Source: Panicum virgatum (lineage: Eukaryota; Streptophyta; Magnoliopsida; Poales; Poaceae). From it: DNA of 64,000 bases. The position numbers and the translations under genes were made by a program. Shown in pieces: positions 8,464 through 53,420 of the stretch (the stretch's first letter is position 1; each line of letters begins with the position of its first letter). The stretch is from NCBI RefSeq assembly GCF_016808335.1, contig NC_053138.1:53846951-53910950 (forward strand), read 5' to 3'. The notes below the pieces were generated by a model. It saw nothing but the letters and a program-made list of their open reading frames with translations. It ran no database searches and was not told the origin of the DNA.

Positions 8464-9325
8464 AACCGGTCTCTCTGTGTCTAATTAGTAGCCGTTGGAG
8501 TTCTGACACAGTGTCCACGCTTGCGTCATTGCACCGGTGCATGCTCCGTAGGGGCATCAGTTCAACGGGTGCTGAAGAGGTTCACTGATCAACTCAAACA
8601 AGCGTTCTGGAACAAAGTATATCCAATGCACCGGTGCTTTGATTCTGAAGTGTCGGTTCAACCGGTGCTGAAGAGAAGTTGAAGTCCACCAAAACATGCT
8701 CTCTGGAACAAAGTACATCTAATGCACCGGTGCTTTTCTTGGGACCATCGGTTCAACCGGTGCTATAGAGTTTTTGACTTGATTCCTGCCTGCTTCCAGA
8801 GAAGATAGACCGACAGGGCATTGGTCCTTCCGCCATGCATCGGATGCTCCGACGCTAGGGCACCGGTTCAACCGGTGCTGCTGTTTTTCTTTGTTTTCAG
8901 CTGAATTGACTTGGATTTGAATGTAACTTCGATTGTTTTTTCTTCCAAGTGTTGTGTTAACTTCTATTGACCATCTTGAGCTGATTTTGAGCGAGTGTGC
9001 AAGATTTATAAGGCCAACTCAATTTTGATCAAGCTACTAACTCATGAACCCCTCTTAATAGTACGATCAAGAACTAGAAACTATAAAACCTAGCTAAAAC
9101 AAGTGTACTTCATCTCCTTGTGACACTTGAGACTAGAAAGGTCCTTACGCTTTCAAATTGAGTCCTTGGTTCGCAAGATTGTTTCGAATTAAGGGGTCTC
9201 CTTTCATATTTCATATGAGACTAATCCAGTCATTGAGTTTTCCTTCAAAACACACGTTAGTCGCATACGGTTGTCATGAATCACCGAAACTTACCAATAG
9301 CATCTATGGGCCTAGATGCGCTACA
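8464..9325 (-). mobile_element. SIRE/Maximus-like Copia LTR fragment, cut by the gypsy insertion
   Basis: The right border (about 9270-9325, with GGGCCTAGATG near the end) aligns by eye with the outer end of the SIRE LTR at 29440-29481 (GGGGCCTAGATC). AGCCGTTGG near 8490 also has a counterpart in that LTR. Between them are four pairs of ACCGGT-centred motifs (about 8533-8880), such as GCACCGGTGC and GGTTCAACCGGTGCT. The rest of the LTR should lie left of the gypsy element. Confidence 0.6.
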
Positions 9326-24679: not shown

Positions 24680-27600
24680 TCTCGTTTCTTCATCAGTAGC
24701 CTTCCCGCATGGAGTCATGATGTGCAAGTAGTCGCATACGTAGTACCCGCACCAATCAGTTCCTTGTTGTTGTCTCGCACACTTAAGAAGAAACAAATAA
24801 ATTACTCAATTTAGAACAATTTGGGATTATATACTTAACTAGACAAATCTTTATGAATGAACATACCGGATAATCCATGTTAACGTTCAGTTCGGGCCTC
24901 CATTGACCACATCCTTTGTTATTTTTCACAAAAATTTTTCAAACCCTGCGCTCAAAGTTAAGTTTGATATTCAGGAATTGTTATTAACAGAAAAAGGATT
25001 TGATTGTGCAAACTGAACTTACCTGTTCAAGGGGTCTATGATATGTTGGATTGCGGACTTTGGATTTCTCATTGAGTCAAAGACTATAAGATTGCCGGTC
25101 TCTACAGAAAGTATGAGTAAAATCCAATGATAACTGCAGATATAGATAGGATATATACATAAATGTATTAGACAACTTAGTATTTATTTAGTAATATAAC
25201 AGAGGTTTGAGTCGATCAAGTCTTACCCAAAGTTGTATGGTATGAATATATAGGATTTGTAACTTTGCCTAGTCAACGAATCGTACATGTTTTGGCACGT
25301 TTCCTTGTAACTTTCGTTGATCAATTTCTGGTTGACTAGCAAAGGAGACATGAAGCCGATCTGATGGTGTCATCCATGTTTTCGGCTTCTTTGGGTCTCC
25401 TGTCTAAACGATGCAATAGAAATTTTATAATGCACACATATAATTATGTTCTTGTTAACAAAAAGTATTAATGTATAGGTAAGTGATACTTACAAAACCC
25501 AAATGGTGATGATAGAGGCGTCGAGGGCTTGTCGATGGTAAATGTGATATAAATTTTGGAAGTACACCCAGAAGTCGTCCTCCCCGCGGAAGAAATCATG
25601 GTCACGATACTTGACTCCAAACATTTTCCCTTCATTTTTCGCCATTCGCAGGTACCATCTATGCAAATTGAGCATCTGCGTGCCTAGACTTTTCTCCTCT
25701 TCCTCAGTGACAAACAGTTTTCCATGCTGGAATGGAGTAATAGTGCGAGCGACAGGGATTTTTGCCTCCACATGCCCCGTTGCCTCCTCTAGCATTAATC
25801 TAGTTTCAGAAAGAAATATTGCGGCCTGTAGGTCCGCCTAGAGTTGTACGTCCGTCGGGTGTAGGAGTGGCAACCCTGGCACCCGGAGGGGCTCGCGTTC
25901 TTTTTGTTGTGTGCCAAGCTGAGGAATGGTCTTGCCACATTTTTTCTTCAGATTTCTCACCTTGTGTGCCTTTGTCAGAGTACGATCATAGTCCGAGGGT
26001 AAGCTTTTCGGTTTTGGTGGGTTGTCTAGGTTTGCGAGAACCTTTTTCCCTAGTTCTAGAGGTACCTTTTCCCTCGGCGGGGGGACTTTAGGCTTCAATT
26101 GTTCTTTTATATATCGAGCAGTCTCCTCTTCCAACTCCTCAGCGGTTTTCTCGTAGGTTAATTGTCTTTCGACTGTTTTCTGCTTCTTCTTTTAGGGTCC
26201 AGCCGCTGGGAGGGATGCTGTCTTTTTCTTTCCCTTTTCTGGTGCAGGAGGAGTTGGAGTACTCGTGGCCCTTTGCGCCGGCAGAGACGGTGGTTAAGGA
26301 GGTGGCAGTGGGGATGGCGGTGAGGTAGGCCGCGGAGACGGGCGATCAGTTTGCACGGGAGCCGTTGTGCTTGCAGTAAGTTTGATGTCGGCCTTGCGCC
26401 ATAGAATGACCCCGTGCAGTGCGTCTCCCAATGTCTTCTCTCCATCCCCTCCAACGAAGTCGAGCTCAAGATCCTCATTGTTTCCAACTATCTGCTCGAC
26501 TGTGATGGAGGTGTAGCCAGGGGGTATCGGCCTTCCATGAATTGTAGTAGAAGGATTCAGGGGCAGGGCTGACCCGTATGCGACATGAATGGATATATTT
26601 CTTGCTCGCACATGAAGCTCGCACGGTGTCGGCATGGTGACATCATCCACTGGATACCTCTGGTCATCTACCGCCGTTGACTCAATCTGGGGTTGCTTTT
26701 CTGCTTGTACGTCGGGTGCCGCTGTGGATGCACAACTGCTGTGTCGCTGAGAGGCCGGGCTTATCACAACATCCGGGTGCGACCCAGCAGTGCCCCTTCT
26801 GCTCAGAGCTAGCTGCACCGCCTCATTGACCCTGGCGTCCATCTGAGATTCCAAGGACGCAACCTTCTTGTTCATCTTTTCTTCTATGGCACGAAGTTTC
26901 TCTTCCTGTTCGGCTCTGCTCTTTCGGTGAGTCTTTTAAGAGGGATCTCCGGCCCAAGCAACTTTCCATGGGACCACGCCGATGCCGCGGGCTCGTCTAG
27001 GGTGTTCTGGATTCTTTAATGCCCTTGTCAGCTCATCATTCTCCCTTTGAGGATGGAATGTTCCTTGTTGAGTCTCATCTATTGCAGCGACTAGATCGCG
27101 AGACACTTCTTGCATATGCTCGGGCACAACCAAACTTCCATCCAACTGGTTTTGTGTCACGCCATTAGCAAATAACCACCACTTGGATCTATCTGGCCAA
27201 TCCCAAGTTGTCGGCCTGATGCCTCTATCCATAAGGTCCTGCTCCATCTTCTGCCATTTTTTAACTGACTTCTTGTACCCGGCAGCCCCAAGGTGGTGGC
27301 TGTACTTCTTATTTGCTGCATTCACCTTGGCTTGTTCGGATTTTTTTGGGCTTTCTCTGATAGTTTGTATTGTTTGAACTCCTCCCAGTATGGTTTAACC
27401 TGAGGAAGATCGTCCCAGTTCGGCTCCTTATCCTTCTTGATGTAATTGGTGTACAACTTCTTCTTGAAAGTTGCAAAGGCAAGGGCCATCTTTCTCAAGG
27501 CACATTTCTTCACAAGTTCTTGGTCAACTCCTTCAGAAAGAGTGAACATATCCTTGAGTTCTGCCCATAGCATTTCCTTCTGATGTGCAGGCACGGCGTG

Positions 27601-28097
27601 TTGCTGTTCTTCGGGTTTGGTCGTTTTCCATAGTCTTGTGGTGATCGGAATTCTTGCCCGAACAATAACCCCACATTGGTTGACAAATTTTGTGCTAGCA
27701 TCCTCTGGAGCACTTGGACAGCCCTCTGCGTCCACTTCTGTGACGACCTGTCTTCCCTCCATTTTCTTGGTTGACCGACGTCTCCCTTTTGACTGGCTCA
27801 ACGAAGTCGATGCGGAGGTCGACTAAATTACAGAAAAGATATGTTAATCCCAAAACTAATCTATCGAAGTCACAATGCATATAGTTTTAAGATTCGTACT
27901 GGAACATGCTGCTGTTGATTGGGCGGCGGCGCAAAGTCATTATCTTCTTCATCGGCACCTCCAGACATATTCAGGAACGAATCAGCTGTCCGAGCATCTT
28001 CTTCAGCGATTGGCAGGGTGGTGTTGGCCCTCGTAGATTCGTTTATTGTGTCCAACATGTATTGTCCGGTGGCCTGCTCATCACCGAAGGGGTCCAT
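24680..28097 (-). pseudogene. CACTA tnp1-like gene fused to a Ulp1 (C48) cysteine protease domain
   Basis: Inferred exons (minus strand): 28097-27900, 27822-25494, 25399-25227, 25133-25023, 24945-24867, 24781-24680, with GT/AG borders. Exon 2 carries the plant transposase-24 type region (around WDWPDRSKWWLFANG) and a later region typical of grass CACTA proteins. The last exons encode the protease: His in YHWILL (about 25125), Asp in VFDSMR (about 25075) and Gln/Cys in QQQGTDWCGYY (about 24760), so all catalytic positions are present. Breaks: one A missing in an A-run near 27340, stops at 26936, 26294 and 25838, a shift near 25378, and TGA at 24939-24941 where relatives have Trp. It presumably assisted transposition or cut SUMO-like tags; that role is inference. 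Confidence 0.8.
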
Positions 28098-28140
28098 CCT
28101 TAACTGAAACCGTAAAAATGTGTTAGAGTATGTGTCCATC

Positions 28141-29481
28141 TGAAAGGATCTTTAGATGCCTAGAGGGGGGTGAATAGGCAATCTGCAATTTAAAACACTT
28201 AACAAAAGGTCAGACACAGACCAACCCGGATACTCCGGGTATACGCCCGGATACTCCGGGTTTGGTGGTCCAGAGTATCCGTAGTTATATCCGGAGTCTC
28301 CGGGTATGAACAACCTAAAAGGAAACTGTAGAAATCTGAGTATGAAAAGTAGATCGAGCTAAAGTAAGAGTACCAGGGGTTCCTTAAGGTTGATATCCAA
28401 CAGAAATAATTCACTAGAAACTCGTGAGTGAGTAGATCGAGCTCAAACCCTAGAAATGAAGTCTCACAAGCAAATAGCAATGAAATCAAGTAAACTAACA
28501 CGAAGGAGACAAAGATTTGTTTCCCAAAGTTCACACCCGAAGGTGCTACGTCTCCATTGAGGAAGGATTCGAGAGACGGTGCTCAAGAACCCCTATGCTC
28601 CTCTTCCAAGGGTGAGATCACCTCTCAAGCCCAAGGTTACTTACTATGGATTCGTCGGCGAGGAATGGAGCTTACAAACTTCTTGTGCAGCTCACAATCT
28701 TGATTGAGCAATCACAAGCACGCCTAGCCGTCTAGGAGCACAAGGCTCCAAGAGTAACAAACTTGAATCCACGGGCTTGACCAAAACCAAGTGCTCAAGA
28801 GATGGAAATGAGGCTCACTAGCACTAATCCTTGCCCTTGCTTGCTTCTCACTCAAATCCCTCAAGGAATCACTCAAGAAAGGAGAAAGGGGAGTGAGAGA
28901 GCTCTTTCTTGGCTTAGGTTTGAGTTTAGCTCGTCAAAGTGGCAAGAGGGAGGGCTGAAGGGGTATGGAGGGGGTATTTATAGTCTTCAGCTCAAAAATA
29001 GCCGTTGGGCGAAAGGGTACCCGGAGACTCCGGGTATATGCCCGGAGACTCCGGGCAACACAGGTTTTTCAGCCCGAAAACAGCACCCGGACACTCCGGG
29101 CAATGGGGTCCGGAGTATCCGGCCCTATACCCGGAGTATCCGGGTAAGGCAGGGAAAAATTTCGGTTTTTGTTCTTTTGAGTTGTTTTGTGGCTCACAAG
29201 TGTTTGTATAGGTTCTCTTGAGCACAAGATTTAAATCGAAACCCTTGAACCAAGTCCCTCTTGATAGTACGGCGTTCCTATACTCAAATTTCAAATTTAA
29301 AATCTAATTTCTTAAGTAAACTTGAACTCCGCTTTTTCATTTCCTTTTTGAGGGTCGTATATCGTCACTTGATCCATTTATACAAATTCACCACCTGCAC
29401 ACATGCTCAATTACACGATTAAATGCACATGTGTTTTGTCATTAACCACCAAAACCCACTTAGGGGCCTAGATCACTTTCA
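28141..29481 (-). repeat. SIRE 3' LTR (1341 bp)
   Basis: TGAAAG at the left edge and CTTTCA at the right edge form the terminal inverted repeat. It holds motif clusters at 28225-28304 and 29020-29145. It is one 21-base motif unit longer than the matching cluster in the other LTR. Confidence 0.93.
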
Positions 29482-29483
29482 AT

Positions 29484-29495
29484 CTTCCCCTTTTT
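29484..29495 (-). other. SIRE polypurine tract
   Basis: On the minus strand AAAAAGGGGAAG directly precedes the 3' LTR start TGAAAGTGATC. Confidence 0.85.
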
Positions 29496-30107
29496 GGTGA
29501 TTGATGACAACCCACATGTAACTCATTTGATAATCATAAAGTGATAAACATCTAGCATATAAGAGCTCCCCCTAAATGTATGCCACGAACTTTGAATTTC
29601 AATTTTGACTTGATATGTCAACAATTGGCATATATATCAAGAGAGCCACAAAAGCTCTTATATGTTTTACAGTGGGGTGAACAGGTGAGTGCAAAGAAAA
29701 TGTGTGATGCATATGACATATTATTCACTCAAGAAAAGAGGTGTTCGACAGCAGAACCCGGAGATTCCGGGTGTAAGTCCGGAGACTCCGGTCAGGATCT
29801 CCGGAGAATCCGGCCGGTAGCCCGGAGTATCCGGCCCTTCTGAACCAGAACACAGAAAAATAGAAAATAGATAGTTCACAGCTCAAATATGTCGCATACT
29901 AGCAGAAATTCCTTAGAATAAACTCAAGTTCGACAGCTAAGCACAGAGTAGCACACATTACAAAGGTTCTCACACCACATAGTCCTTACAAACGACATAA
30001 GTTCGATACAAAGGCGAAACATGCCCAAATGAGTACATAAATGGCATTTTCACTCCCCCTTTGTCATCAAGTGCCAAAAAGGGAATGAAAAGAAGCAAGA
30101 AGTCCAT

Positions 30108-31822
30108 CTACTCATCATCTTCATCTTGGGCGGCATCCTCGGAGGTATCCTCATCTTCAACGGAGTCGGGGTGCTCACGGTAGCCTATGGGCTCATCTTC
30201 TTTGGTCTCCTCTTCCTCATCAAAGATCTCTTGGCCACTCGGAGGAGCCCGGCGTGAGGAAGAAGAAGCGGGGCGACGAGGAGAGTGGGCTTGGCGTCGA
30301 GCACGAGGAAGTGGAGCATGAGCAGCAGCAACAGCAGCCTCATCGGCGGCATCCCACTCAGCAAAAGGATCATCAAAGTCCGGGAGCTCGCGGTAAGAAT
30401 CCAAAGGAAGCCCCAAGTGACCCCGAATTTCATTGATCGACCTTGTGTTCTCATGAACATCTTGTGCAATGTTCCTGCACATTCCAAACAAGCTGCGGAG
30501 GGCCCTCTTCACAAAAGGAACATTCCAAACAAGCTGCGGAGGGCCCTCTTCACAGAAGATGGAGCAGGATCATGTCTTGGGTTTCTTGTTGCACCAGCAT
30601 GAGATGGAGGAGGAGGTGGTGCATCACCAGAGCGGGCACGCAGGTGAAGAGATTCATGCTTGACTGTCTTTGGAAATGTGACCTTTGTCACCCTCTCTAT
30701 CATGTACATGATGTATGGTGCTGCAGGAAGTGACTTCTTGGCCTCAATCATAGTCCTTCTTAGCTCATTCCAAATGAAGTCCATGGTGCAAAAATGTCTT
30801 CCACTTGGCAAAGTACGGGCTAGAAGATTCACTGCATAGTATCTAAGTGCCACGGAATCACCATCCTTTGCATCAATAGTGGCTCTAAAGAATTGATTCA
30901 TTGCATAGTATACCGGTAGGAGATGGTTTGCCTTTCCTTCTTGAGCACAAATAGGATTGTAGAGCAAGGTAGGTACTTGATATGGCTTGAGTTGTTCCTC
31001 AACATGAATGTGATCTCTTTTCTCATCCTCAGTGCCAAGTCCAAGTAACCTAGAGAATGTCATGTAATCCACTCCATACTTGGCTCCCTCGGTGGTCCAA
31101 TAGAATGCAATCTCCCTTTCATCATAGTACAAAGAAGAGTGAAATTGAGCTAGAATTTCCTCATTCCAATCATAGCGAAAACCCATGATATCATAAAGAC
31201 CCATCTCCTTGCACTTTTCCATAGCCTCATTAAAGAATGGATCCTTCATATTTTCATAGTATTTCCAATCCACGTACTTGCATGGAACAATGGGAGCACG
31301 AGACTTACGCATCACCACTGAGGAATAGAAGTCTTCATGAAGCTTGCACCAAAAGCGCCTCTCAAGACCTTCACTCTTGTCATATTTGTAGACTTCCTCC
31401 TTGCGTGCCTCCCTAAGTGCCACATCTTGCTTGTAGTAATTTCTTTCCATCTCAATAGCAAAGCCATGAACAATTCCAGGACGATGATGCCTTGGAACGC
31501 TTGGATAGTTGCGTTGCTCAGATGTGTATTCAACTCTCAAGCGAGGAGGGGTTTTAGGACAAATGTTATGAGCAATACCCTTGCTTGTTGGAGTTGGACG
31601 GGATGGAGGAGCTGCGGGTCGGCTTTGCATAATGTAAGGAGCTTTCCTTGGCTCTTTTCCTGCACTGCTCCCAGCGGGTTCTTTCCCCGCACGATGACGT
31701 GGATGCAACTCCCTTGGAGGATTTCGAGGGGCATCTTCCCTTTGAGTGTGAGGATCATGACGACTCTTTTGCCTTCTTTGTTCCGCATCCTCCAAGGATT
31801 CACCAGCACGTGGCCTCACCAT
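30108..31822 (-). pseudogene. SIRE additional 3' ORF (env-position protein), split by a tandem duplication
   Basis: The ATG at 31822 opens a 437-codon frame that ends at 30509. The rest (30512-30108) lies in another frame: it begins KRALRSLFGM, the text that ends the first frame, and finishes in an acidic Glu/Asp tail. The break is a direct duplication of at least 34 bases with a 41-base period (30480 and 30521), not a multiple of three. The middle part (Trp/Tyr-rich, such as WNEEILAQFHSSLYYDE) resembles the putative plant transposon protein domain in grass SIRE-like third ORFs. No signal peptide or membrane segment is visible, so an envelope role has no support here. Its function is unknown. 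Confidence 0.75.
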
Positions 31823-32719
31823 GCCTAAGGATGGATAAGAAAGATCAAGACCAAGCTGGATAGAATTGGGAAGAAAAAGATGTTTTGGTGGTGATCAAGT
31901 CCGGAGACTCCGGGTATATTCCCGGAGACTCCGGCCCATAGGGTCCGGAGTATCCGGGTGTATATCCGGAGTATCCGGATTCGAGCATCTAAAATCCTAA
32001 GATTCAAAAATCTAGAGATTTGACCATGGGATTTGAATGAAACTTGAGGCAAAGGTTCCTACACATGCTAGAAAGAGATGCCCTAAAGATCTTTCAAAGA
32101 AACCTACGGCATTGGGAGATCGGGAGATCCGAAGTTCAAAATACCTTTGAGACTATTGAGAGCGCGGGAACTTCAAATCCAAAGCCTCCCCAGAGTTTCC
32201 GGAGGGGAGGAGAGTCTTCCTTCAAAGATTGACGAGTTCTTGATGGTTAGAAGGGTGGAATCGCCCCTAGGGCGTGAGAGGGGAAGAGGAGAAGGGTGAG
32301 GGCGGCGTCGGCAGTGAAAAATGACTTGAAACCATTTGACCCCAACCCCCCGCGGTATATATAGTAAAACTTAATTACCCGGAGTATCCGGCCGCAGGGC
32401 CAGAGTATCCGGACGTTCCGGAGTATCCGGGCCCTGGGCCGGAGACTCCGGCTCCCCCTGAGACTGAGCAAAAAAAGTTCAAAAGAACTTGATCTAGATA
32501 GATTTGGTAGAGATAGATTTTGAAGATCTAATGGTGTGAGAGAAATTACTCAACTCGAGATCAGCCAACAATCAATCAAGGAGAACAATGATCTCAAGTG
32601 AGTAAAGTGAAGAACCAAGCCTTTTTATAGAACAAAAGTCACCCATTTTTGAAAGTTTTCAAGATCTTTTCATTTTGGAGAACCACTTAATCTAGGATCA
32701 CTCAAGTGCATGCAGTAAT
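31823..32719 (-). other. SIRE spacer between pol and the third ORF
   Basis: Non-coding. It contains motif clusters at 31900-31979 and 32379-32451 and could hold a promoter or splice site for the third ORF: TATATATAG at about 32355 reads as a TATA-like element on either strand. Confidence 0.5.
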
Positions 32720-35700
32720 TCAAGCTAGGTTATGAGAATCCAAGATGTTTAGTTCACTTCTCAAAGCACAAAACCTTGACTCATCTAGAGGCTTAGTAAA
32801 GATATCGGCAAGTTGCCCGTCGGTGCTTACATGTTGTAAAGCAATATCTCCCTTAGCCTCATGATCCCTTAAGAAGTGATGACGAATATCTATGTGCTTT
32901 GTTCGGGAGTGTTGTACCGGGTTGTTTGCTAACTTGATTGCACTCTCATTGTCACAAAATAGAGGAATTGCATCAAAATGACAACCAAAGTCACTCAACG
33001 TTTGTTTCATCCACAAGAGTTGTGCACAACACGCACCGGCGGCGACATACTCGGCCTCCGCCGTGGACAAAGCAACCGAATTTTGCTTCTTAGAGCTCCA
33101 AGCTACTAAAGACCGGCCAAGAAATTGACAAATCCCCGTAGTGCTCTTTCGATCCATTTTGCAACTGGCATAATCCGAATCGGAATAGCCAAGTAAGTCG
33201 AAAGATGAGCCCTTGGGATACCATAAACCAAGGTTAGGAGTGAAGACCAAATATCTTAGGATTCTCTTAACCGTCATCAAATGATATTCTTTCGGATTAG
33301 CTTGAAATCTTGCACACATGCACACACTAAGCATAATATCGGGCCTAGATGCACAAAGGTAAAGAAGGGATCCAATCATGGAGCGATATACCTTTTAATC
33401 CACGGCCTTTCCATCTTCATTGAGATCGAGATGCCCATTGGTTGGCATGGGAGTTTTGATGGGCTTGGCATTTTCCATGTCAAACTTCTTGAGCATATCC
33501 TTTAAGTACTTGGTTTGACTAATGAAAGTGCCATCCTTGAGTTGCTTGATTTGAAATCCGAGGAAGAAGGTCAACTCACCCATCATAGACATCTCAAATC
33601 TCTTTGTCATAATCCTACTAAAATCATCGCACCAAGTTTTGTTAGTAGAGCCAAATATAATGTCATCGACATATATTTGGCACACAAAGATATCTTTATC
33701 AACTTTGCGAGTGAAAAGAGTAGGATCGGCTTTGCCTATTTCAAAGCCTTTCCTTAAGAGAAAGTCCTTAAGGCATTCATACCATGCTCTAGGGGCTTGC
33801 TTGAGCCCATAGAGCGCCTTATGGAGCAAGTAGACGTGGTTTGGGAATTTTGGATCTTCAAAACCCGGTGGTTGCTCAACATAAACCAATTCGGAGATTG
33901 ATCCATTAAGGAAAGCACTCTTCACGTCCATTTGATATAGCTTGAAGTCATGGTGAGTAGCAAAGGCAAGCAAGATACGAATTGACTCAAGCCTAGCTAC
34001 GGGAACATAAGTCTCACCAAAATCCAAACCTTCAATTTGTGTGTAGCCTTGAGCAACCAACCTTGCTTTGTTTCTTGTTACCACGCCATGTTCATCTTGT
34101 TTGTTTCGAAAGACCCATTTGGTTCCAATGATATTTTGCTTGGGTCTTTCTACTAAGGACCAGACTTCATTCCGAGTGAAGTTGTTCAATTCCTCTTGCA
34201 TAGCCATCACCCAATCCGGATCATCCAATGCTTCTTCCACCTTAAGAGGTTCCAAGGAAGAAACAAACGAGTAATGTTCACAAAAAGTAGCCAAACGAGA
34301 TCGAGTGGTTACCCCTTTACTTATACTTCCAAGGATATTATCCACGGGATGATCCTTTTGAATTATGTGATAAACTCTTGGATGTGGAATGGAGGATTGA
34401 TGTTGGATTGGTTCAGCTTCTCTATCATCTTGAGACTGATCTTGATGTTGAGTTGATGCCTCGGCTTGAGTAGCCCGGATACTCCGGTATGGAGTCCGGA
34501 TACTCCGGTCAAGATGTCCGGAGTCTCCGGCTTCGTATCCGGAGTTTCCGGGTTTTGCAGCGGATGTAGAGGTAGATGGCCCTTGAAACATCAACTCATC
34601 ATCATTATCATTGTCCACTTGTTCTTGAGGCTTTATTTCACCAATCGCCAACTCCTTGATAGCTTGACTTGATGATTCTTCCATTCCTACAACATTATCA
34701 ACTTGCTCTCCTTGAGGGCCATTAGATTCATCAAATGTCACGTCACACGCTATTTCAACACAACCGGAGGTTTTGTTGAAAACACGATAGCCATGAGCAT
34801 TTGAGGCATAACCAAGAAGAAAACCTTCATCAACTTTAGGTGCAAACTTAGAGTTCTTGGGCTTCTTGTTAAGAATGAAGCACTTACTTCCAAAAACTCT
34901 AAAGTAAGACACATTAGGCTTTTTACCAAGTAGAAGCTCGTATGCCGTCTTGTTCAAGATCTTGTGAAGATACAGGCGGTTGATAGCATGACATGCCGTG
35001 TTGATTGCTTCCGCCCAAAATTGATCCGAGATCTTGTACTCATCAAGCATTGTTCTTGCGGCCTGGATGAGAGTTCTATTTTTCCTCTCAACAATTCCAT
35101 TTTGTTGAGGAGTGTATGGAACCGAGAACTCATGACCAATGCCCTCTTCATTTAGAAACTCTTCTACATTAGTGTTCTTGAATTCGGTGCCGTTGTCACT
35201 TCTCACTTTCTTGATCTTAGTCTCAAATTCATTTTGAGCTCTTTTTGCGAATTTCTTGAAAGTCTCTTGCACTTCACTTTTGTCTTGCAAAAAGAACACC
35301 CAAGTGAAACGAGAATAATCATCAACAATGACAAGACCATATTTGTTACCACCAATGCTAATGTACGCCACCGGGCCAAAGAGATCCATACGTAGAAGTT
35401 CAAATGGCTTGACGGTGGTGACGATGCTCTTTGATGGATGTGGAACACCAACTTGCTTCCCGGCTTGGCATGCACTACAAACACGATCTTTTTCAAAAGA
35501 AACATTTGTTAGTCCTAGGATGTGATCCCCCTTTAGAAGCTTGTTGAAATTTCTCATCCCTACGTGAGCTAGTCGGCGATGCCATAACCAATCCAAGCTA
35601 GACTTTGCTATCAAGCAAGCATCAAGTTGAGTCCTCTCTTGAGAAAAATCCACAAGATAGAGCTTTCCCTTGAGCACCCCCTTGAAAGCAACGGAGTCAT

Positions 35701-35977
35701 CGCTTCTTCTAATGACGGTTACACCCTCGTTAGTGAACAAACAATTGAAGCCCGAATCACAAAGTTGTGAGATGGACAACAAATTGTAACCAAGTGACTC
35801 AACTAAAAGAACTTTTGAGAGAGTGAACTTTGAGTTTAGGTTAATGTTACCGGTACCAAGCACCCTTCCCTTTTGATTTCTCGCAAAAGTAATGAAATGA
35901 TCTCCACTTGATGCGGTTATTGTTTCAAACATACTCCTTTCTCCGGTCATATGATTTGTGCATCCACTATCAATCAC
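32720..35977 (-). pseudogene. SIRE pol: protease end, integrase, reverse transcriptase, RNase H
   Basis: The frame starts at the protease active site (IDSGCTNHM). Then come the integrase zinc finger (His-His then CSACQ) and core residues (MDLFGP, SDNGTEF, QQNGIVERKN), a long linker, RT with YVDDIIFG, and RNase H with STAEAEY. Order PR-INT-RT-RH defines Copia. An in-frame TAA at 33395-33397 (relatives have Gln) separates RT from RNase H (32720-33379), which continues in the same frame. The INT-RT linker contains a motif cluster (34473-34552) translated in frame. Otherwise the frame is open for 860 codons, so the element is fairly young. Confidence 0.9.
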
Positions 35978-36038
35978 CCAAGTTGATCCACCGGAGGAGT
36001 ATCCCTACAAAACAAAGTTACTCTTTTCTTTTAGGTAC

Positions 36039-38648
36039 TCAACAATACTTGGGTCCTTTAATGTTAGTCACAAGAACTTTGGGCACCCATACATGGTTTT
36101 TCACTTTTGTGTTCCATGTACGGTGTCCTACAAACTTGGCAACCACTTTACCACGGTGGTTCCTTGTCAATACATAATCGGCATAAAAGGATACATGAGA
36201 TGATTCTTGTGCCTTGATCTTAGTTGGGTTAGAGGCCTTGAACTTATCTTCTTTGAATGAGGATGCAACAATCTTAACACCCTCATCACTTGTTGTGCCT
36301 CTCTTGATGAAGTTGACATGACCACTTTCTTGAATCACATCATTTGTCTTGTGAATGGGAGTGGTCATGTTCACTAGACCTCCTTGAGCACCCAAGGCGG
36401 TCTTGTTCTTATTCTTGGTGAATGGAATGGCATGTGGAGTACCTTGCCCATTCCTACCAAGTCCCTTACCCACTTCAAACCCAAACTTGCTCATGTATCT
36501 TGACCCAAATCCCTTGGTGTGTTTCTCAAATTCACCTACCCTTGTAAAGGGAATTTTCTTTGGGACTTGAGTATGTGATGGATCCTCTTCTTGCAACAAA
36601 TGAGTGAGTCTAGAGATTTCTTTCTTCATTGCATTCATCTCAACATGGTTAGTAGCACAAGTTTGAATATCGATGTTATAGCACCGTGCACAACCATTAC
36701 TAGTAGAGGGACTAGATGAATTAGATGTCTCTCTAGTCTTAGGAGTACTTTCCCAAAGAGAATTAAATTGAACTTCAAGTGCCGTGTGATTAGCTTGTAA
36801 GCTTGTTATGCTCTCTTGAAGTTTCTCATTATCTTTCCTTAGAAAAGTGTTAGTGTCATTGACAAAAGAAAATTTTCTAGTCAAATCATTCACTTTTTCT
36901 TTTTCACTAGAGAGTGACTCTTTCAACTCAAGAAGAGTGCCATCCTTGACTTTGATTGAGTTCACAAGCATCTTGTTTTCCTCCCTTTCATAGGCGAGGT
37001 CCTTTTCAAGAGCCTTGAATTTTTCTCTCTCAAGTCTAAGCAATTCTTCTTGTGTTTCAAGAGTCTCATCCGCTTCATCTAGTTTCATAACTAATTTTAT
37101 CATTTTAGTTGCGGCTCCTTTACCATATTTCTTGACTAGTTTAGCAACTTCTACTTCATTATCCATTTCATCGTCCGATGAGTTTGGAGATGTTACCTTG
37201 GAGTTTTTAGCCATGAGGCACATGACGGGATCTTCATCCTCATTGTCGGTGAGATCTTCAAACAAGCTTGGAGGATGTGGAGATAATGCCTTGAAAGCCA
37301 TGGTTGCAACATCTTCTTTCTCGGACTCACTTTCTTGTTGTGAATCCCATTCTTGACCAAGATGAGCTTCTCCGGCTTGCTTCTTGTATTTTGATCTATC
37401 TCTCTTGGATGTGCTTTCTTTGGTGTCTTTGTTCTTCTTCTTTTCTTCCGGGCAATCGGCAATGAAATGCCCAACTTTGTTACACCCAAAACACGGCCTA
37501 TTAGATCTTCTTCTTGGCTCAAACTTCTTGTTCTTTCCAAAGTTTCTAAAGTTGCCTCTCTTCAATACTCTTGTGAAGTTCTTGATAAAGAAAGCCATTT
37601 GGTCATCATTAAGCTCTTCATTATCATCCTAGTGCCATCATTTTTTGAGGATTGGTTTGCCTTTTCTTTGCCTTTTGACTTAGCTTGAAATGCCAACCCA
37701 CTATTCTTAGCCGCTTGTTGTTGAAGCTCGGCTAGATTTTGGTTGATCTTGACTCTCTTCAATTGATCATGGTGAGCTTCAATTCTTCCAAGAACATTAT
37801 CGGCGGTGAAATATTTGAATCCTCTTTCGGCTCTAATCAAGCTAGGTAGAGTAACATCCCTAGCCATATACACGGTCAAGAGCTTGTCCACAATCTCACG
37901 GTCACCCCACTTGTCACCACCAAGAGAATTGATTTGGTTTGTGATCTTCTTCATGCGGTTATACATTTTTTTTCACACCTTCATCCTTCTTCATGGAGAA
38001 TAAGCTCAATTCATCTTCCAAAGTTTTGATTCTTGATTCACATACTTTCCTTGACCCTTGATGGTTCACTAGAAGAGTGTCCCAAGCATCTTTGGCGGTT
38101 GGTGCATCCTCTATCTTGTCAAACTCTTCGGGACTCACGGATGTGTGTAGGATGTTCAACGCTTGGAAATTCCTTTGTAGCACATATGCTTGAATCGGTG
38201 TTGGAGTTTCATCTTCATCCGGAATTTCACACCCAACTTCCACAACTTTCCAAAGATCCTTGTGGATTGCATTCATGTAACCGAACATCTTAGTCTTCCA
38301 TTGATTATATCCGGTACCATCAAAGAAAGGTGGCTTGCCCATATGAATTGATGCATTGTGCTCACTAGGTAGAGAAAAAGTGTAATCATGAGCAACTCTT
38401 CGATAATCACCTTTGCCTTTTGACTTTGATGAGCTGCCCTTGTTTGAAGAGCGTGAGGCTCTTCTCTTGGAATCGGTGTCGGAGTCATCACTAGAGTCAA
38501 TGATAACTCGGGAGCTAGTCTTTTTCTTCCTTTTCTCCTTTTTCTTTTTCCTCCATGCCTTCCACTCCTCATAAGACATCTCATCATCGGATGTCTCTTC
38601 TTCACTTTCATCAACCGGATTCACCGGATTCTTTTCATCATCCGACAT
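36039..38648 (-). pseudogene. SIRE gag with CCHC knuckle, frameshifted
   Basis: The ATG at 38648 (MSDDEKN), 44 bases after the primer site, begins an acidic then Lys/Ser-rich region, followed by the Copia gag core (FDGTGYNQWKTKM). The first frame ends at 37959 after a run of eight A, where one A is extra. The second frame runs 37966-37562, and a third shift near 37600 leads to 37598-36039. The last part has the zinc knuckle CFGCNKVGHFIADC, a long coiled coil (about 37150-36750) and the linker to protease. A further shift and TAG lie between 36039 and 35977. The original product would assemble the particle and bind RNA. Confidence 0.85.
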
Positions 38649-38691
38649 CTTGACCTCTCCGGACGGTTAAACCCTTTGAATGGAGAGCCAA

Positions 38692-38703
38692 GCTCTGATA
38701 CCA
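38692..38703 (-). other. SIRE primer binding site
   Basis: On the minus strand TGGTATCAGAGC, two bases after the 5' LTR (38706). Confidence 0.92.
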
Positions 38704-38705
38704 AT

Positions 38706-39916
38706 TGAAAGGATCTTAAGATGCCTAGAGGGGGGGTGAATAGGTAATCTGCAATTTAAAACACTTAACAAAAGGTCAGACACAGACCAGCCCGGATACT
38801 CCGGGTTTGGTGGTCCGGAGTATCCGGAGTTATATCCGGAGTCTCCGGGTATGAACAACCTAAAAGGAAACTGCAGAAATCTGAGTATGAAAAGTAGATC
38901 GAGCTAAAGTAAGAGTACCAGGGGTTCCTTAAGGTTGATATCCAATAGAAATAATTCACTAGAAACTTGTGAGTGAGTAGATCGAGCTCAAACCCTAGAA
39001 ATGAAGTCTCACAAGCAAATAGCAATGAAATCAAGTAAACTAACACGAAGGAGACAAAGATTTGTTTCACGAAGTTCACACCCGAAGGTGCTACGTCTCC
39101 ATTGAGGAAGGATTCGAGAGACGGTGCTCAAGAACCCCTATGCTCCTCTTCCAAGGGTGAGATCACCTCTCAAGCCCAAGGTTACTTACTATGGATTCCT
39201 CGGCGAGGAATGAAGCTTACAAACTTCTTGTGCAGCTCACAATCTTGATTGAGCAATCACAAGCACGCCTAGCCGTCTAGGAGCACAAGGCTCCAAGAGT
39301 AACAAACTTGAATCCGCGGGCTTGACCAAAACCAAGTGCTCAAGAGATGGAAATGAGGCTCACTAGCACTAATCCTTGCTCTTGCTTGCTTCTCACTCAA
39401 ATCCCTCAAGGAATCACTCAAGAATGGAGAATGGGGAGTGAGAGAGCTCTTTCTTGGCTTAGGTTTGAGTTTAGCTCGTTAAAGTGGCAAGAGGGATGGC
39501 TGAAGGGGTATGGAGGGGGTATTTATAGTCTTCAACTCAAAAATAGCTGTTGGACGAAAGGGTACCCGGAGACTCCGGGTATATGCCCGGAGACTCCGGG
39601 CAACACAGGTTTTTCAGCCCAGAAACAGCACCCGGACACTCCAGGCAATGGGGTCCAGAGTATTCGGCCCTATACCCGGAGTATCCGGGTAAGGCAGGGA
39701 AAAACTTCGGTTTTTGCTCTTTTGAGTTGTTTTGTGGCTCACAGTGTTTGTATAGGTTCTCTTGAGCACAAGATTTAAATTGATACCCTTGAACCAAGTC
39801 CCTCTTGATAGTACGGCGTTCCTATACTCAAATTTCAAATTTAAAATCTAATTTCTTGAGTAAACTTGAACTCCGCCTTTTCATTTCCTTTTTGAGGGTC
39901 GTATATCGTAACTTGA
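38706..39916 (-). repeat. SIRE 5' LTR, outer end truncated
   Basis: It aligns with 28141-29372. Similarity stops at 39916, and the final 109 bases of the LTR (29373-29481) have no counterpart. Motif clusters are at 38791-38849 and 39564-39690. Confidence 0.92.
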
Positions 39917-41030
39917 GCTAAAGCTATTCTACGCGTTACAACGATCGCGTGGACATAAAGAACGCCTAAAACGGAGCTAGAACGCGAAAACTAGGCTTAA
40001 AACAAGACCTAGGGGCTAAACTGTAAGAAAAACAGAGTTTCCTGGGGTTTTCTGCAAAAACCAGGGACCTATACGTAATTAACGGGTAGACCCAGGGGCT
40101 AACGCGCAAAACTACGCTGGCCGGATCGCGAGTTCAAAACTGGGAAAGTTCAGGGGTCTAAGTGAATAAAATAGGGCCTGGATGTAATTACTTTTACACT
40201 GGTTAGGACCGCGGGTTAAAAACCTAAAAGGACAGGGACTCTTTAGCAAGAATCCAGGCGTAGGATCTCGATCGGGTGGTCCATGGAAGGTTGGGCGGGG
40301 GAGCGACGGCGGAAGCGCTGGCATGTGGCGGCGCACGACAGCGGGGTCGCCGGAGTTTGCCAATCCGGTGTTCCAGGGCTTGGTTCAGGGTGCTGTTTGG
40401 CCGTGGGTGGAGTACGCGACGCGCGTAACCCAACTGGGAACTCATGGCGGTGGATTAGGGCCTGGTCGGAGCTCACCACGATGAGGGGCAGCGCTGGGTG
40501 GTGACGCTCGCCGGAGTGCGGCGTGCAAGCCGTTCTGTGGCTCGGGCGCGTGTACAAAAAGGGTGTGGGGCTTGCACAAGACACTGGAAAGGCTGTGCAG
40601 GGGTCGTGCGGGGTAGCGCGGCGCTGTGGCGCATCCGCCATGGCGGGGCAGAGGCGTGCGCGTCGGCGAAAACATCGGCGTGCGATGCCCGGCTACCTAG
40701 TGTGCGTCAAGGGCCAATTTAACTAGCGCAAAAAGGACGGGGAGGCCTGGGGGTGCTTACCGAGGCTCGGGTGAGAGCGGTGTAGTCGTGCAGAGATGCC
40801 GGCGTTGATGGCAGCGGCGGGGCACGACGAAGCTCGGGGCGAAGTCGATGCTGCACTCCTCACGGCTTCTGGACTCCGCGGACCGGCTCAAGGAGGTCCT
40901 GTGATGGTGCCACGGGGGTCAGAGAGGCTCGGAGATGGCCGACGGCGAGGGATTGCGGAGATGGAGGGCGGCGGCGGTTGACCGGAGGAAGGTGATGAGC
41001 AGTAGAGATTTGGGAGGAAGAAGGCAGCGG
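39917..41030 (-). other. CACTA interior with inferred tnp1 leader and a possible captured LTR piece
   Basis: 40765-41030 read on the minus strand follows a TATA box and ends at a donor-like CTCGGTAAGC, fitting a 5' untranslated exon of tnp1. 39917-40240 (GGGGCTAAACTG, CAGGGGTCTAAGTG text) resembles gypsy LTR sequence. 40240-40720 is GC-rich, with frames on both strands but no recognisable protein. Confidence 0.4.
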
Positions 41031-41040: not shown

Positions 41041-41415
41041 GTAGCCAAGGGTACCGGGTAAAAAATCCAACCGGTGCCTTAGGCAGGCCTTAGGTACCGG
41101 TTGCATCTACAACCGGTGCCTTAGGCGAGGCCTTAGGTACCGGGTCTCAGAACAACCGGTGCCTAAGGCCCAACGGGCGGGAAATGAAAAGACCCTATGG
41201 TACCCGGTGGATATCCAAAACCGGTACCTTAGGCTATTTAAATTTAACTTTTCACAAATCTTTGACCGAGTTGGAACGGAATTCTTCAGTATCTCAATGG
41301 TAACGCTCGGTAATTTGGGCTCCGCGGCCACGGTTCGACTCCCGCGCGACGCCCCACTTTTTTTTACCCAAATATGACCCTAAGGTACCGGTTGGATTTT
41401 CCAACCGGTACCAAA
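41041..41415. repeat. Internal ACCGGT-type repeat array between the two CACTA genes
   Basis: Units such as GGTACCGGTTGGATTTTCC and AACCGGTGCCTTAGGC occur in both orientations, closely like the two terminal arrays. It also holds a B box-like GGTTCGACTCC (41332-41342) and a T8 run (41358-41365). Confidence 0.75.
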
Positions 41416-51780: not shown

Positions 51781-53420
51781 TTTTGAGGGACCGATACTGG
51801 CGACAAAAGAGGGGTGAATGGAAGCCGATCAAAATTTCTCTCGAAATCGATCCGTCGGCCTATATCCCAAAATTCACCGCAAACCCTCTACCTAAGGTAC
51901 GTGAGAATAGCTATGGACAAACTATCTCACAGAAGCACACCCTAGGAAACTTCGCGGAAGCAAAACGGGAAAAACTCCCCAATCAGCAGCACTACTGAGT
52001 CAGACCGGTCTGACCACTAGCACAGACCGGTTGGGCTGGAAATTGAATTTCCAGACCGGTCAGGCCGGTTACCCAGACCGGTCAGACCGGTCGCTCCCAG
52101 ACAGCCCGCAACCAAAGCTTCAAATGGCAAAACTCGAGCAAACAAAATCTAAATCCAACGAAACTTGGAGGATACCTTCACACCTGTCCCATGAACATAT
52201 CCTCAAGAGATCTCTCCCAAAAGATTAAAGAATCTTGTGAATTCGGGGGAAGATCAAAGTGGATTGGGGTTTTCCCATGAACACAAAAACTCCAATTCGT
52301 GAGAACTCACGATTCCAGGGGGTTTAGCACTAGGCTAGATGCATCGGAATCGTCACAAAGAGTTCAACAAAACAAGAATTCAAAGGGTTGTCTCCTCCAA
52401 ACACAAAACACACCAAAAGAGGAGAATTCAAACCCAAAACGTAAGAAAGAAAGGAGAGGACGAATACTCTGCACACATAGATGATTTCAACAAGATTTCA
52501 TTCATAAATTTCAGAGGAATTCACCTATACAAAGGCTAGAGCCATCCGCCCATCATCCTACCCACTAATTTGAGAGATTAGCTAAACCCTAACCCTCTTT
52601 TGCTTTGGAGTCCTTGGTCCTAACCTGAAGCAGGGGCAGGGAGAAGGAAAAACGAAGAGAATACAAAAAGACTCAAGAGACTCAACCAGCCACGGGCTGG
52701 TGGGGGTATTTATACCCAGCTGCTGCGGCCAGACCGGTCAGACCTGTCCATGGGACCGGTCAGACCGGTCGGGTCTGCAGCAGCCCGCTGTACAGACTCA
52801 ATCGACGGCGGAGTTTCTTTCTTCAACTCGAAGTCTTTGCTGCGATGCCGCCACGTCGACGAAGTTCCGGTCCGCGGTTTTGGAGGGTCCGCGAAACCCG
52901 GGTAGGTGGCCGGTTTTGAGAAAACCGCCAAAACTTCACGCGCGGGAAGATTCCCGCCTCCACGCTGTGGCCCTAGACGCCGTTCCCACCTCGGCCTTCT
53001 GACGGCCCTAGACGCCGCCCGACGCCCGTCACCTCCTCGCCCGCAGCGAGGCCCTAGACGCCGTCGACGCCCGTCGCATCCGTCAGTCCCGAGACCGACG
53101 CCTGTGCCTCCACGACTTGGCGTCTTCAACCGTCGTCCGCCTGCTTGGTTTTGTGGCGCAAACCAAGAAACCCGCCTTCCGTCGCCGCTTGCGCCCTCGA
53201 TCCAGGAATGGACGCCACAGCTGCCGCCCGGCCTGAGCTCCTCCACGGCAGCTCTCCGTCGACATTCGACGCCCGTGTACCTGCAATCCAAAGACCAAGT
53301 GCACGATCATACCGCACGGTTGACAATTTACTCATCACAAGCAGGATAGAGTACTCTCATTCCTCAAGTTTTAAGGAATATCGCTCAACTCTTAAACTCA
53401 AATTAAGATAAGAAAACGGA
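51781..53420. mobile_element. Retroelement (probably SIRE-like LTR) fragment with ACCGGTC repeats
   Basis: GAGGGGTGAATGG near its start resembles the inner LTR edge of the SIRE element (GGGGGGTGAATAGG). GACCGGTCAGACCGGTC motifs are clustered at about 52000-52100 and 52728-52772, in the same relative places as the motif clusters of the SIRE LTR. The GC-rich 52800-53250 gives frames on both strands without known domains. Borders and TSD not found. Confidence 0.4.

What the first reader, a model, noticed from the sequence alone, without database searches (positions are those of the whole stretch)
28225..39690. Eight clusters of a palindromic CCGG-flanked motif through one SIRE element, including inside pol
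The unit CCGGATACTCCGG and its reverse complement CCGGAGTATCCGG (with variants such as CCGGAGACTCCGG) occur about 33 times in clusters of 3-5: 28225-28304, 29020-29145, 29757-29834, 31900-31979, 32379-32451, 34473-34552, 38791-38849 and 39564-39690. Units are spaced about 20 bases. Most clusters hold units of one orientation then the opposite, so they can fold. They sit in both LTRs, in non-coding spacers and in the INT-RT linker, where they are translated. One family spreading inside an element suggests a selected site (protein binding, CG methylation target, RNA hairpin) or a self-amplifying sequence.
Basis: partly seen in the sequence, partly recalled or inferred. Interest (0 to 1): 0.8.

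Follow-up and report, generated by a model that had tools for sequence, protein, structure and literature searches.

The report
Retrotransposon promoter boxes copied into pol
A switchgrass jumping gene carries dozens of copies of a short mirror-symmetric DNA box beside its promoters and once inside its polymerase gene; boxes of this kind are already known in this group of elements, but the set inside the protein-coding part seems to be kept by selection on the DNA letters rather than on the protein.

Summary
In detail: 30 exact CCGGANNNTCCGG, 0.05 expected, all in 28226-39688, in the eight clusters named. The boxes are a known kind, the CGG-CCG "repeated motif" of Sirevirus retrotransposons, described upstream of the LTR TATA box and of the env-like gene (PMC2829016). 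Three things go beyond what I read there. (1) A four-box module lies in the coding INT-RT linker. It changes far less than its own spacers (p=2e-8) and its synonymous sites are as constrained as its nonsynonymous ones. Pooled over this and the pre-env cluster, variants shared between copies are depleted in boxes (OR 0.18), single-copy changes are not: selection acted on source elements. (2) The module is absent from a sister clade, whose boxes, where found, have another core. (3) A TATA box lies within 40 bp after the pre-env boxes in 37 of 46 loci (control about 0.02), a candidate internal env promoter; other families lack it. Best reading: phased docking sites for a dimeric DNA-binding factor driving both promoters; an RNA role stays open. 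The factor is unknown. New variant of a known kind.

The parts
28142..29482 (-). 3' LTR of a Sirevirus (Ty1/copia) element lying on the minus strand
   Evidence: TG...CA ends read; 33 mismatches in 1210 aligned columns to the other LTR
38707..39917 (-). 5' LTR, lacking about its first 110 bp
   Evidence: direct repeats D3, D4, D6; similarity stops near 39912
37959..38648 (-). gag N-terminal ORF
   Evidence: PF14223 Retrotran_gag_2 E 8.3e-13
36039..37598 (-). downstream gag-side ORF with a G-patch domain
   Evidence: PF01585 E 1.9e-8
33395..35977 (-). pol ORF: gag-pre-integrase, integrase, linker, reverse transcriptase
   Evidence: PF13976, PF00665, PF25597, PF07727
32720..33379 (-). RNase H end of pol, in a separate ORF (label from position; no Pfam hit)
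   Evidence: no hit; as query it matches downstream of RT in L058, L061 and L062
30509..31822 (-). env-like extra ORF (437 aa), split from 30108-30512 at a 41-bp tandem duplication
   Evidence: 2 of 44 aligned sequences match PF20167
39564..39690 (-). LTR promoter cluster of boxes (5' LTR)
39520..39527 (-). LTR TATA box (TATAAATA on the element's strand), 38 bp after the last box
38791..38849 (-). U5/leader cluster (5' LTR; one 21-bp unit fewer than the 3' LTR)
34473..34552 (-). four-box module inside pol, INT-RT linker, translated
32379..32451 (-). box cluster upstream of the internal TATA (env-up1)
32356..32363 (-). candidate internal TATA box (TATATATA), 15 bp after the last box
32190..32202 (-). 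single box between the two pre-env clusters, decayed here, exact in many other copies
31900..31979 (-). four-box module in the leader just before the env-like ORF (env-up2)
29757..29834 (-). four-box module between the env-like ORF and the 3' LTR
29020..29145 (-). LTR promoter cluster of boxes (3' LTR)
28225..28304 (-). U5/leader cluster of boxes (3' LTR)

Best explanation
The clusters are arrays of the Sirevirus repeated motif. Each box is a dyad of two CGGNN half-sites around one central base (CGG-N5-CCG), suited to a dimeric DNA-binding protein. In this family boxes stand 21 bp apart (two helical turns) in pairs, and two pairs facing each other make a four-box module. Shown here: in the pol and env-up1 clusters boxes are constrained, in pol at the level of nucleotides rather than peptide; boxes stand just before a TATA box in the LTR and again before a TATA box that precedes the env-like ORF; a further module lies in the leader before each start codon. 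Inferred: one factor binds all arrays and switches on the genome-length RNA and a separate env RNA; the pol module is an added docking site placed in a variable linker of the protein that tolerates insertion. Whether host or element encodes the factor is not known.
For: Conservation: in 30 close loci (the window's own copy, L005, included) pol boxes differ at 0.0086 (CCGG letters) and 0.0017 (inner five) per cell, CpG transitions set aside, against 0.0448 in spacers, 0.0243 in flanks and 0.0329 at RT third codon positions. Box against spacer columns p=2e-8; synonymous changes in boxes 17 over 14.7 sites, in flanks 208 over 48.3 sites (39 copies). Shared variants depleted in boxes (22 of 3025 against 663 of 16640, OR 0.18; OR 0.32 if RT is added to the comparison), single-copy changes not (31 of 3025 against 222 of 16640, p=0.19) (pol and env-up1 pooled). 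The boxes in pol are read in two frames (PGNSG/AGDSG and RSIR), against peptide selection. Phasing genome-wide: 158 pairs at period 20, 2859 at 21, 593 at 22, controls 0. Promoter context: TATA within 40 bp in 37 of 46 env-up loci, control 0.02.
Against: No binding, expression or chromatin data were available. Selection on RNA would leave much of the same pattern: the clusters fold strongly, module spacers partly pair, and the pol module folds better as oriented than with boxes 3 and 4 flipped (-43.7 against -35.2 kcal/mol, 12 of 29 distinct copies). With CpG transitions counted, box columns in pol are not significantly less variable than flank columns (p=0.07). Inner bases are only about twofold constrained in env-up1. 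Another box family has other spacings (33, 95 bp), so 21-bp phasing is not general. Of five loci outside the main clade with pre-env boxes, four have no TATA within 120 bp and one has it at 113 bp; L069 and L076 also lack it, and L058 and L061 show none after their pre-env boxes. Copies are related, so p-values overstate independence.
Confidence: 0.56

Rival explanations
1. Selection is on RNA: the modules fold into long hairpins in the genomic and env RNAs, acting in translation or packaging, and incidentally feeding small RNAs as proposed for maize Sireviruses.
For: RNA fold z-scores -2.5 to -9.3 for six clusters. Two modules lie in leaders shortly before start codons (about 140 and 80 bp). 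Spacers 1 and 3 of modules are complementary beyond chance (23 of 48, null 12.1, p=0.0007); in env-up1 spacers strengthen the fold (z -2.66, 6 copies). The pol module folds less well with boxes 3 and 4 flipped. Palindrome clusters are small-RNA hotspots in maize Sireviruses (passages of PMC5311732 and PMC10760457).
Against: Two stretches without boxes also fold better than shuffles (z -4.0, -2.6). In pol the spacers add nothing to the fold (z 0.26, 12 copies) and pair 2.83 of 8 against 2.26 when shuffled (29 distinct copies). In env-up1 flipping boxes 3 and 4 gives a stronger fold (-58.9 against -52.0). Facing boxes recurrently carry AGACT opposite AGTAT, which leaves a mismatch. One array lies upstream of the TATA, and 21-bp phasing has no obvious RNA reason.
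Confidence: 0.17
2. The boxes are targets of a factor encoded by the element itself that changes specificity together with its boxes and keeps the element open to transcription, as VANC proteins do for VANDAL transposons in Arabidopsis.
For: Boxes of one element share a half-site across LTR and env-up, and families in one genome differ: CGGAG/CGGAT here, CGGAA in L080, L082 and L084, GCGGTT in L081 (one env-up box only), CGGTT in L058 and L061, CGGAC in L077. Matched LTR/env-up pairing ranks 1 of 120 permutations in 5 elements. Arrays are spread over the element. VANC targets are likewise arrayed and diverge with the protein (passages of PMC5735166; abstract of PMC10398659).
Against: Published Sireviruses without env have LTR boxes too (PMC2829016), so env cannot be the factor everywhere. 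Apart from integrase no DNA-binding domain was recognised in seven ORFs, nor for the env-like family. No sign of CpG protection. Three of the five elements share CGGTT, so the pairing test is weak.
Confidence: 0.15
3. The boxes have no function; they spread within the element by duplication and slippage.
For: Modules share order and partly share spacers (82 identities, null 58.5, p=0.0018); the two LTRs differ by exactly one 21-bp unit.
Against: Boxes stay while spacers drift.
Confidence: 0.06
4. The boxes in pol are kept for the peptide they encode.
For: The pol module keeps its place and the 21-bp steps keep the frame within each pair.
Against: The two box pairs are read in different frames and give unrelated peptides; synonymous sites in boxes are as constrained as nonsynonymous ones; the same boxes occur in non-coding DNA.
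Confidence: 0.03

Closest known systems
Sirevirus repeated motif (RM) boxes, Bousios et al. 2010 (PMC2829016; section 9 read whole, other passages by term search)
   Same: Palindromic CGG-CCG boxes in high copy, in the LTR before the TATA box and before the env gene, each family with its own consensus; extra copies at the start of env in two elements
   Different: The section and passages read report no boxes in pol, no 21-bp phased four-box modules and no conclusively identified internal env promoter; 117 of 127 LTR copies there lay in the upper half of the LTR, whereas this family also has a full module near the LTR end
Palindrome-rich LTR region of maize Ji, Opie and Giepum Sireviruses (Bousios et al. 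2016; paper not held; seen only as cited in passages of PMC5311732 and PMC10760457)
   Same: Clustered palindromes of CCGGAC type in the LTR, with predicted secondary structure
   Different: In the passages read the palindromes are placed in the LTR; this family has a different core and also internal arrays, one of them coding
VANC target motifs of VANDAL DNA transposons (passages of PMC5735166; abstract of PMC10398659)
   Same: Short motif in arrays in several non-coding parts of one element, diverging between related elements
   Different: No dyad or fixed phasing in what I read; there the binding protein is known and encoded by the element; here it is unknown
Fungal Gal4-type sites, CGG-Nx-CCG (recalled, no call)
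   Same: Inverted CGG triplets with fixed spacing
   Different: Fungal zinc-cluster proteins; no plant counterpart shown here

Membership tests
Sirevirus (Ty1/copia) element | Copia order: gag, integrase before RT, RNase H | tested here: met
   Pfam domains in order for gag, integrase, RT; RNase H by position and similarity to relatives only
Sirevirus (Ty1/copia) element | Conserved LTR/PBS junction (here ATTGGTATCAGAGC) | tested here: met
   present after the 5' LTR; 1038 like sites in the genome. The paper's own 16-mer was not compared letter by letter
Sirevirus (Ty1/copia) element | Multiple polypurine tracts before the 3' LTR | not tested
   only the terminal tract next to 29482 was seen by eye
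Sirevirus RM boxes | Dyad with CGG-CCG core in many copies | tested here: met
[quoted passage not shown]
   TATA 38 bp after the last box in the window's 5' LTR; in 19 of 22 other LTRs with boxes a TATA follows at 10-88 bp
Sirevirus RM boxes | Additional cluster upstream of env when env is present | tested here: met
   32379-32451 and 31900-31979
Sirevirus RM boxes | Boxes form CpG islands | not tested
   no island prediction was run
VANC-type anti-silencing target | Element-encoded protein that binds the motif | not testable with these tools
VANC-type anti-silencing target | Motif changes together across the element between families | tested here: met
   5 elements, matched pairing rank 1 of 120; small sample, three of five share one half-site

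The most novel reading that the evidence does not exclude
The boxes are the DNA half of a coevolving pair in an LTR retrotransposon: a factor carried by the element recognises a family-specific CGGNN dyad, and each new specificity is fixed at all arrays of the element, including one built into pol, so that one factor controls only its own family and opens it to transcription.
Probability: 0.13. Interest if true: 0.82.

Novelty: new variant of a known kind. Interest (0 to 1): 0.45.

Why it matters
It puts a number on selection at Sirevirus boxes in young copies by separating source-level from post-insertion changes, shows that a box array can sit inside a retrotransposon polymerase gene under nucleotide-level constraint, and points to a TATA box for an internal env promoter in this family. 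If the binding factor is encoded by the element, it would be a retrotransposon counterpart of the VANC system.

Tried and rejected
A first ungapped count over the pol linker was spoiled by indels (11 of 41 copies dropped) and was replaced by gapped alignments. A host LBD/LOB factor was considered from memory; four paper searches and one for the literal pattern gave nothing usable, so it is not claimed. Excess or lack of CpG decay in boxes was tested and not found. Rfam lists no family at 27500-40500. The env-like ORF has no Pfam hit of its own and its family no PDB relative by sequence. L092, a box-bearing stretch of another element, showed no similarity to the pol or gag queries. A gag identity for the box-bearing ORF of L093 is weak (DUF4219 E 0.033), and its frame is interrupted once before the boxes. 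L088-L091 held no primer site and were not used as LTR mates. L037 and L038 list identical boxes and may be one LTR counted twice. The pairing test used 5 elements, those for which I had both regions and a primer site. A search for switchgrass LTR palindromes listed two unrelated papers. On re-reading I added a result that I had left out, the weaker fold of the flipped pol module, and moved 0.02 of confidence from the best explanation to the RNA rival for it.
Full report
What is there. The pattern CCGGANNNTCCGG occurs 30 times in the window against 0.05 expected, all between 28226 and 39688; with four decayed units and without one overlapping match the eight clusters hold 33, and a single further box lies at 32190. 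The host structure is a Ty1/copia element on the minus strand: 5' LTR (high coordinates, its first ~110 bp missing), gag with a downstream ORF carrying a G-patch domain, pol, an env-like ORF, 3' LTR. The two LTRs differ at 33 of 1210 aligned columns, about one million years at a recalled grass rate of 1.3e-8. The genome has 1.13 Gb in 627 contigs; the lengths of two contigs equal those printed for Panicum virgatum proteins, so I take it to be switchgrass (inference).

Known kind. Bousios et al. 2010 (PMC2829016; section 9 read whole, other passages by term search) describe such boxes in Sireviruses: palindromic, CGG-CCG core, clustered before the LTR TATA box and before env, with a family-specific consensus. 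By my count of its Table 3, 8 of the 12 CGG-CCG motifs have five bases between the triplets, as here. The motif is therefore not new. Later maize work ties the LTR palindromes to small RNAs (passages of PMC5311732 and PMC10760457; the 2016 paper itself is not held).

Anatomy. Within clusters, boxes start 21 bp apart in pairs, with 22-23 bp (once 18) between pairs; the five-box LTR promoter cluster has a 45-bp step. Genome-wide, tandem box pairs number 158 at period 20, 2859 at 21 and 593 at 22; reversed-pattern controls give 0. In the capped lists many period-20 pairs have core ATGAT, and many period-22 pairs are AACTT or the middle step of the pol module, so period goes partly with family. 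Five of six cluster types share the order AGACT, AGACT, AGTAT, AGTAT or close variants, on the plus strand in the LTR promoter and before and after env, on the minus strand in U5 and pol; env-up1 differs. Spacers are alike beyond chance overall (82 identities, null 58.5, p=0.0018); LTR, env-up2, U5 and env-down drive this, while pol and env-up1 spacers resemble the others little. I read this as one module duplicated within the element, boxes kept, spacers lost. The 3' LTR has one 21-bp unit more than the 5' LTR, so units also come and go after insertion.

Other copies. The first RT search scored 148 of 12577 candidates and listed 149 matches. I used 50 of these places: the 30 best (loci, the window's own copy L005 among them) and 20 from the lower identities. 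Boxes with at least 7 of 8 CCGG letters were counted. In the pol linker 41 of 50 have three or four boxes, most at -362, -341, -319 and -298 from one point of RT; L071 and L078 have two, L085 one, and L079-L084 none. On a tree of RT (28 loci), L079, L080 and L082-L084 form one clade (support 1.0); L081 sits beside L085 with low support, 0.6. L080, L082 and L084 carry TCGGAA-type boxes before env, L081 a single GCGGTT box; L079 and L083 show none of these there. In two further families (L058, L061) and L062 no boxes were seen in the linker. The pol module was thus most simply gained on the lineage of this family.

Selection. In the 30 close loci, pol-linker boxes differ at 0.0086 (CCGG) and 0.0017 (inner five) per cell without CpG transitions, against 0.0448 in the spacers between them, 0.0243 in flanks, 0.0329 at RT third positions and about 0.0045 at RT first and second positions. 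In nine more distant copies plus L005 the figures are 0.035 and 0.062 against 0.277 in spacers and 0.147 in flanks. By columns over 39 copies, box against spacer p=2e-8 and box against flank p=1.5e-4; with CpG transitions included these are 1.4e-6 and 0.07. Box synonymous changes are 17 over 14.7 sites and nonsynonymous 42 over 37.3, the same rate, while flanks show 208 over 48.3 and 381 over 183.7. In the non-coding env-up1 cluster of the close loci, boxes are at 0.0225 and 0.0395 against 0.0763 in flanks and 0.0739 in spacers. Splitting changes by sharing, pol and env-up1 pooled: variants seen in more than one copy are depleted in boxes (22 of 3025 cells against 663 of 16640, OR 0.18; with RT added to the comparison OR 0.32), whereas variants in a single copy are not (31 of 3025 against 222 of 16640, p=0.19). 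Selection acted on the source elements and ended at insertion. Single-copy CpG transitions are equally frequent in boxes and flanks (14 of 931, 8 of 735, p=0.52), so nothing shows that boxes are special methylation targets or shielded. Copies share ancestry, so p-values are too small, but box and spacer share it equally. The LTR, U5, env-up2 and env-down clusters were not tested in this way.

DNA, RNA or protein. The two box pairs in pol are read in different frames and give unrelated peptides (PGNSG/AGDSG and RSIR). Another family (L093) has two AAGTT boxes in the frame that opens just after the primer site, interrupted once in this copy, again in two frames; its gag identity is weak. So the peptide is not what is kept. 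Clusters fold better than shuffles (z -2.5 to -9.3), but two box-free stretches also do (z -4.0, -2.6). In pol the spacers add nothing to the fold (z 0.26, 12 of 29 distinct copies), whereas in env-up1 (6 copies) they do (z -2.66); flipping boxes 3 and 4 weakens the pol fold (-35.2 against -43.7 kcal/mol) but strengthens that of env-up1 (-58.9 against -52.0). Across modules spacers 1 and 3 are complementary. The RNA evidence is thus mixed; an RNA role, above all in the leaders, is open.

Promoters. Of 50 loci, 46 have a box in the stretch scanned before env; 37 of these 46 have TATA[AT]A within 40 bp downstream, mostly at 16 bp by the script's count, against about 0.02 in random stretches of like length; three more have it at 46-113 bp and six not within 120 bp. 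Those six are L069, L076 and four of the five loci outside the main clade; L058 and L061 show no TATA after their pre-env boxes in the pieces held. So the internal TATA belongs to this family, not to Sireviruses at large. In other LTRs with boxes a TATA follows the last upstream box by 10-88 bp in 19 of 22. Both transcription units of this element look alike: boxes, TATA, leader, a module, start codon. Bousios et al. favoured an internal env promoter but could not conclusively identify one. A search for Sirevirus with internal promoter listed four papers, of which I read passages of the 2010 one only, so I do not claim that nobody has reported it.

Concerted cores. Families in this genome differ in half-site, and LTR and env-up of one element agree: matched pairing ranks 1 of 120 permutations in five elements, though three of the five share CGGTT and L081 has one env-up box. 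For the element of L082, TCGGAASTTCCGA pairs lie about 2.3 kb and about 5.1 kb downstream of RT start, the distances of env-up and the 3' LTR (positions; the farther place was not sequenced). Of 21 primer-site-anchored LTRs, 20 hold CGG-N5-CCG boxes.

Verdict. A known kind of cis-regulatory box, with a new placement in pol and good evidence for source-level selection on nucleotides. I hold the docking-site reading at 0.56, with the identity of the factor as the main open question.

Noticed in passing
window 8654-8874: CGGTTCAACCG boxes, two of them 95 bp apart, the box type of another Sirevirus family.
   Followed up: partly
window 52057-52767: CGGTCAGACCG boxes, a third Sirevirus box type in the same 64 kb.
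   Followed up: partly
window 41043-41250: Inverted, tandemly repeated motif ACCGGTGCCTTAGGC / GCCTTAGGTACCGG with a period of about 43 bp; origin not traced.
   Followed up: no
window 36039-37598: The downstream gag-side ORF carries a G-patch domain, PF01585, E 1.9e-8.
   Followed up: no
window 30479-30558: A 41-bp tandem duplication lies where the env-like ORF is split in this copy.
   Followed up: no
L093, about 330-370: Two AAGTT boxes 22 bp apart in the frame that opens just after the primer site of another family, read in two frames.
   Followed up: partly
pol linker of L067, L068, L072, L074, L077: The third pol box has core TCTAA instead of AGTAT: the inner bases are replaced while the outer CCGG letters are kept or nearly so.
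   Followed up: no
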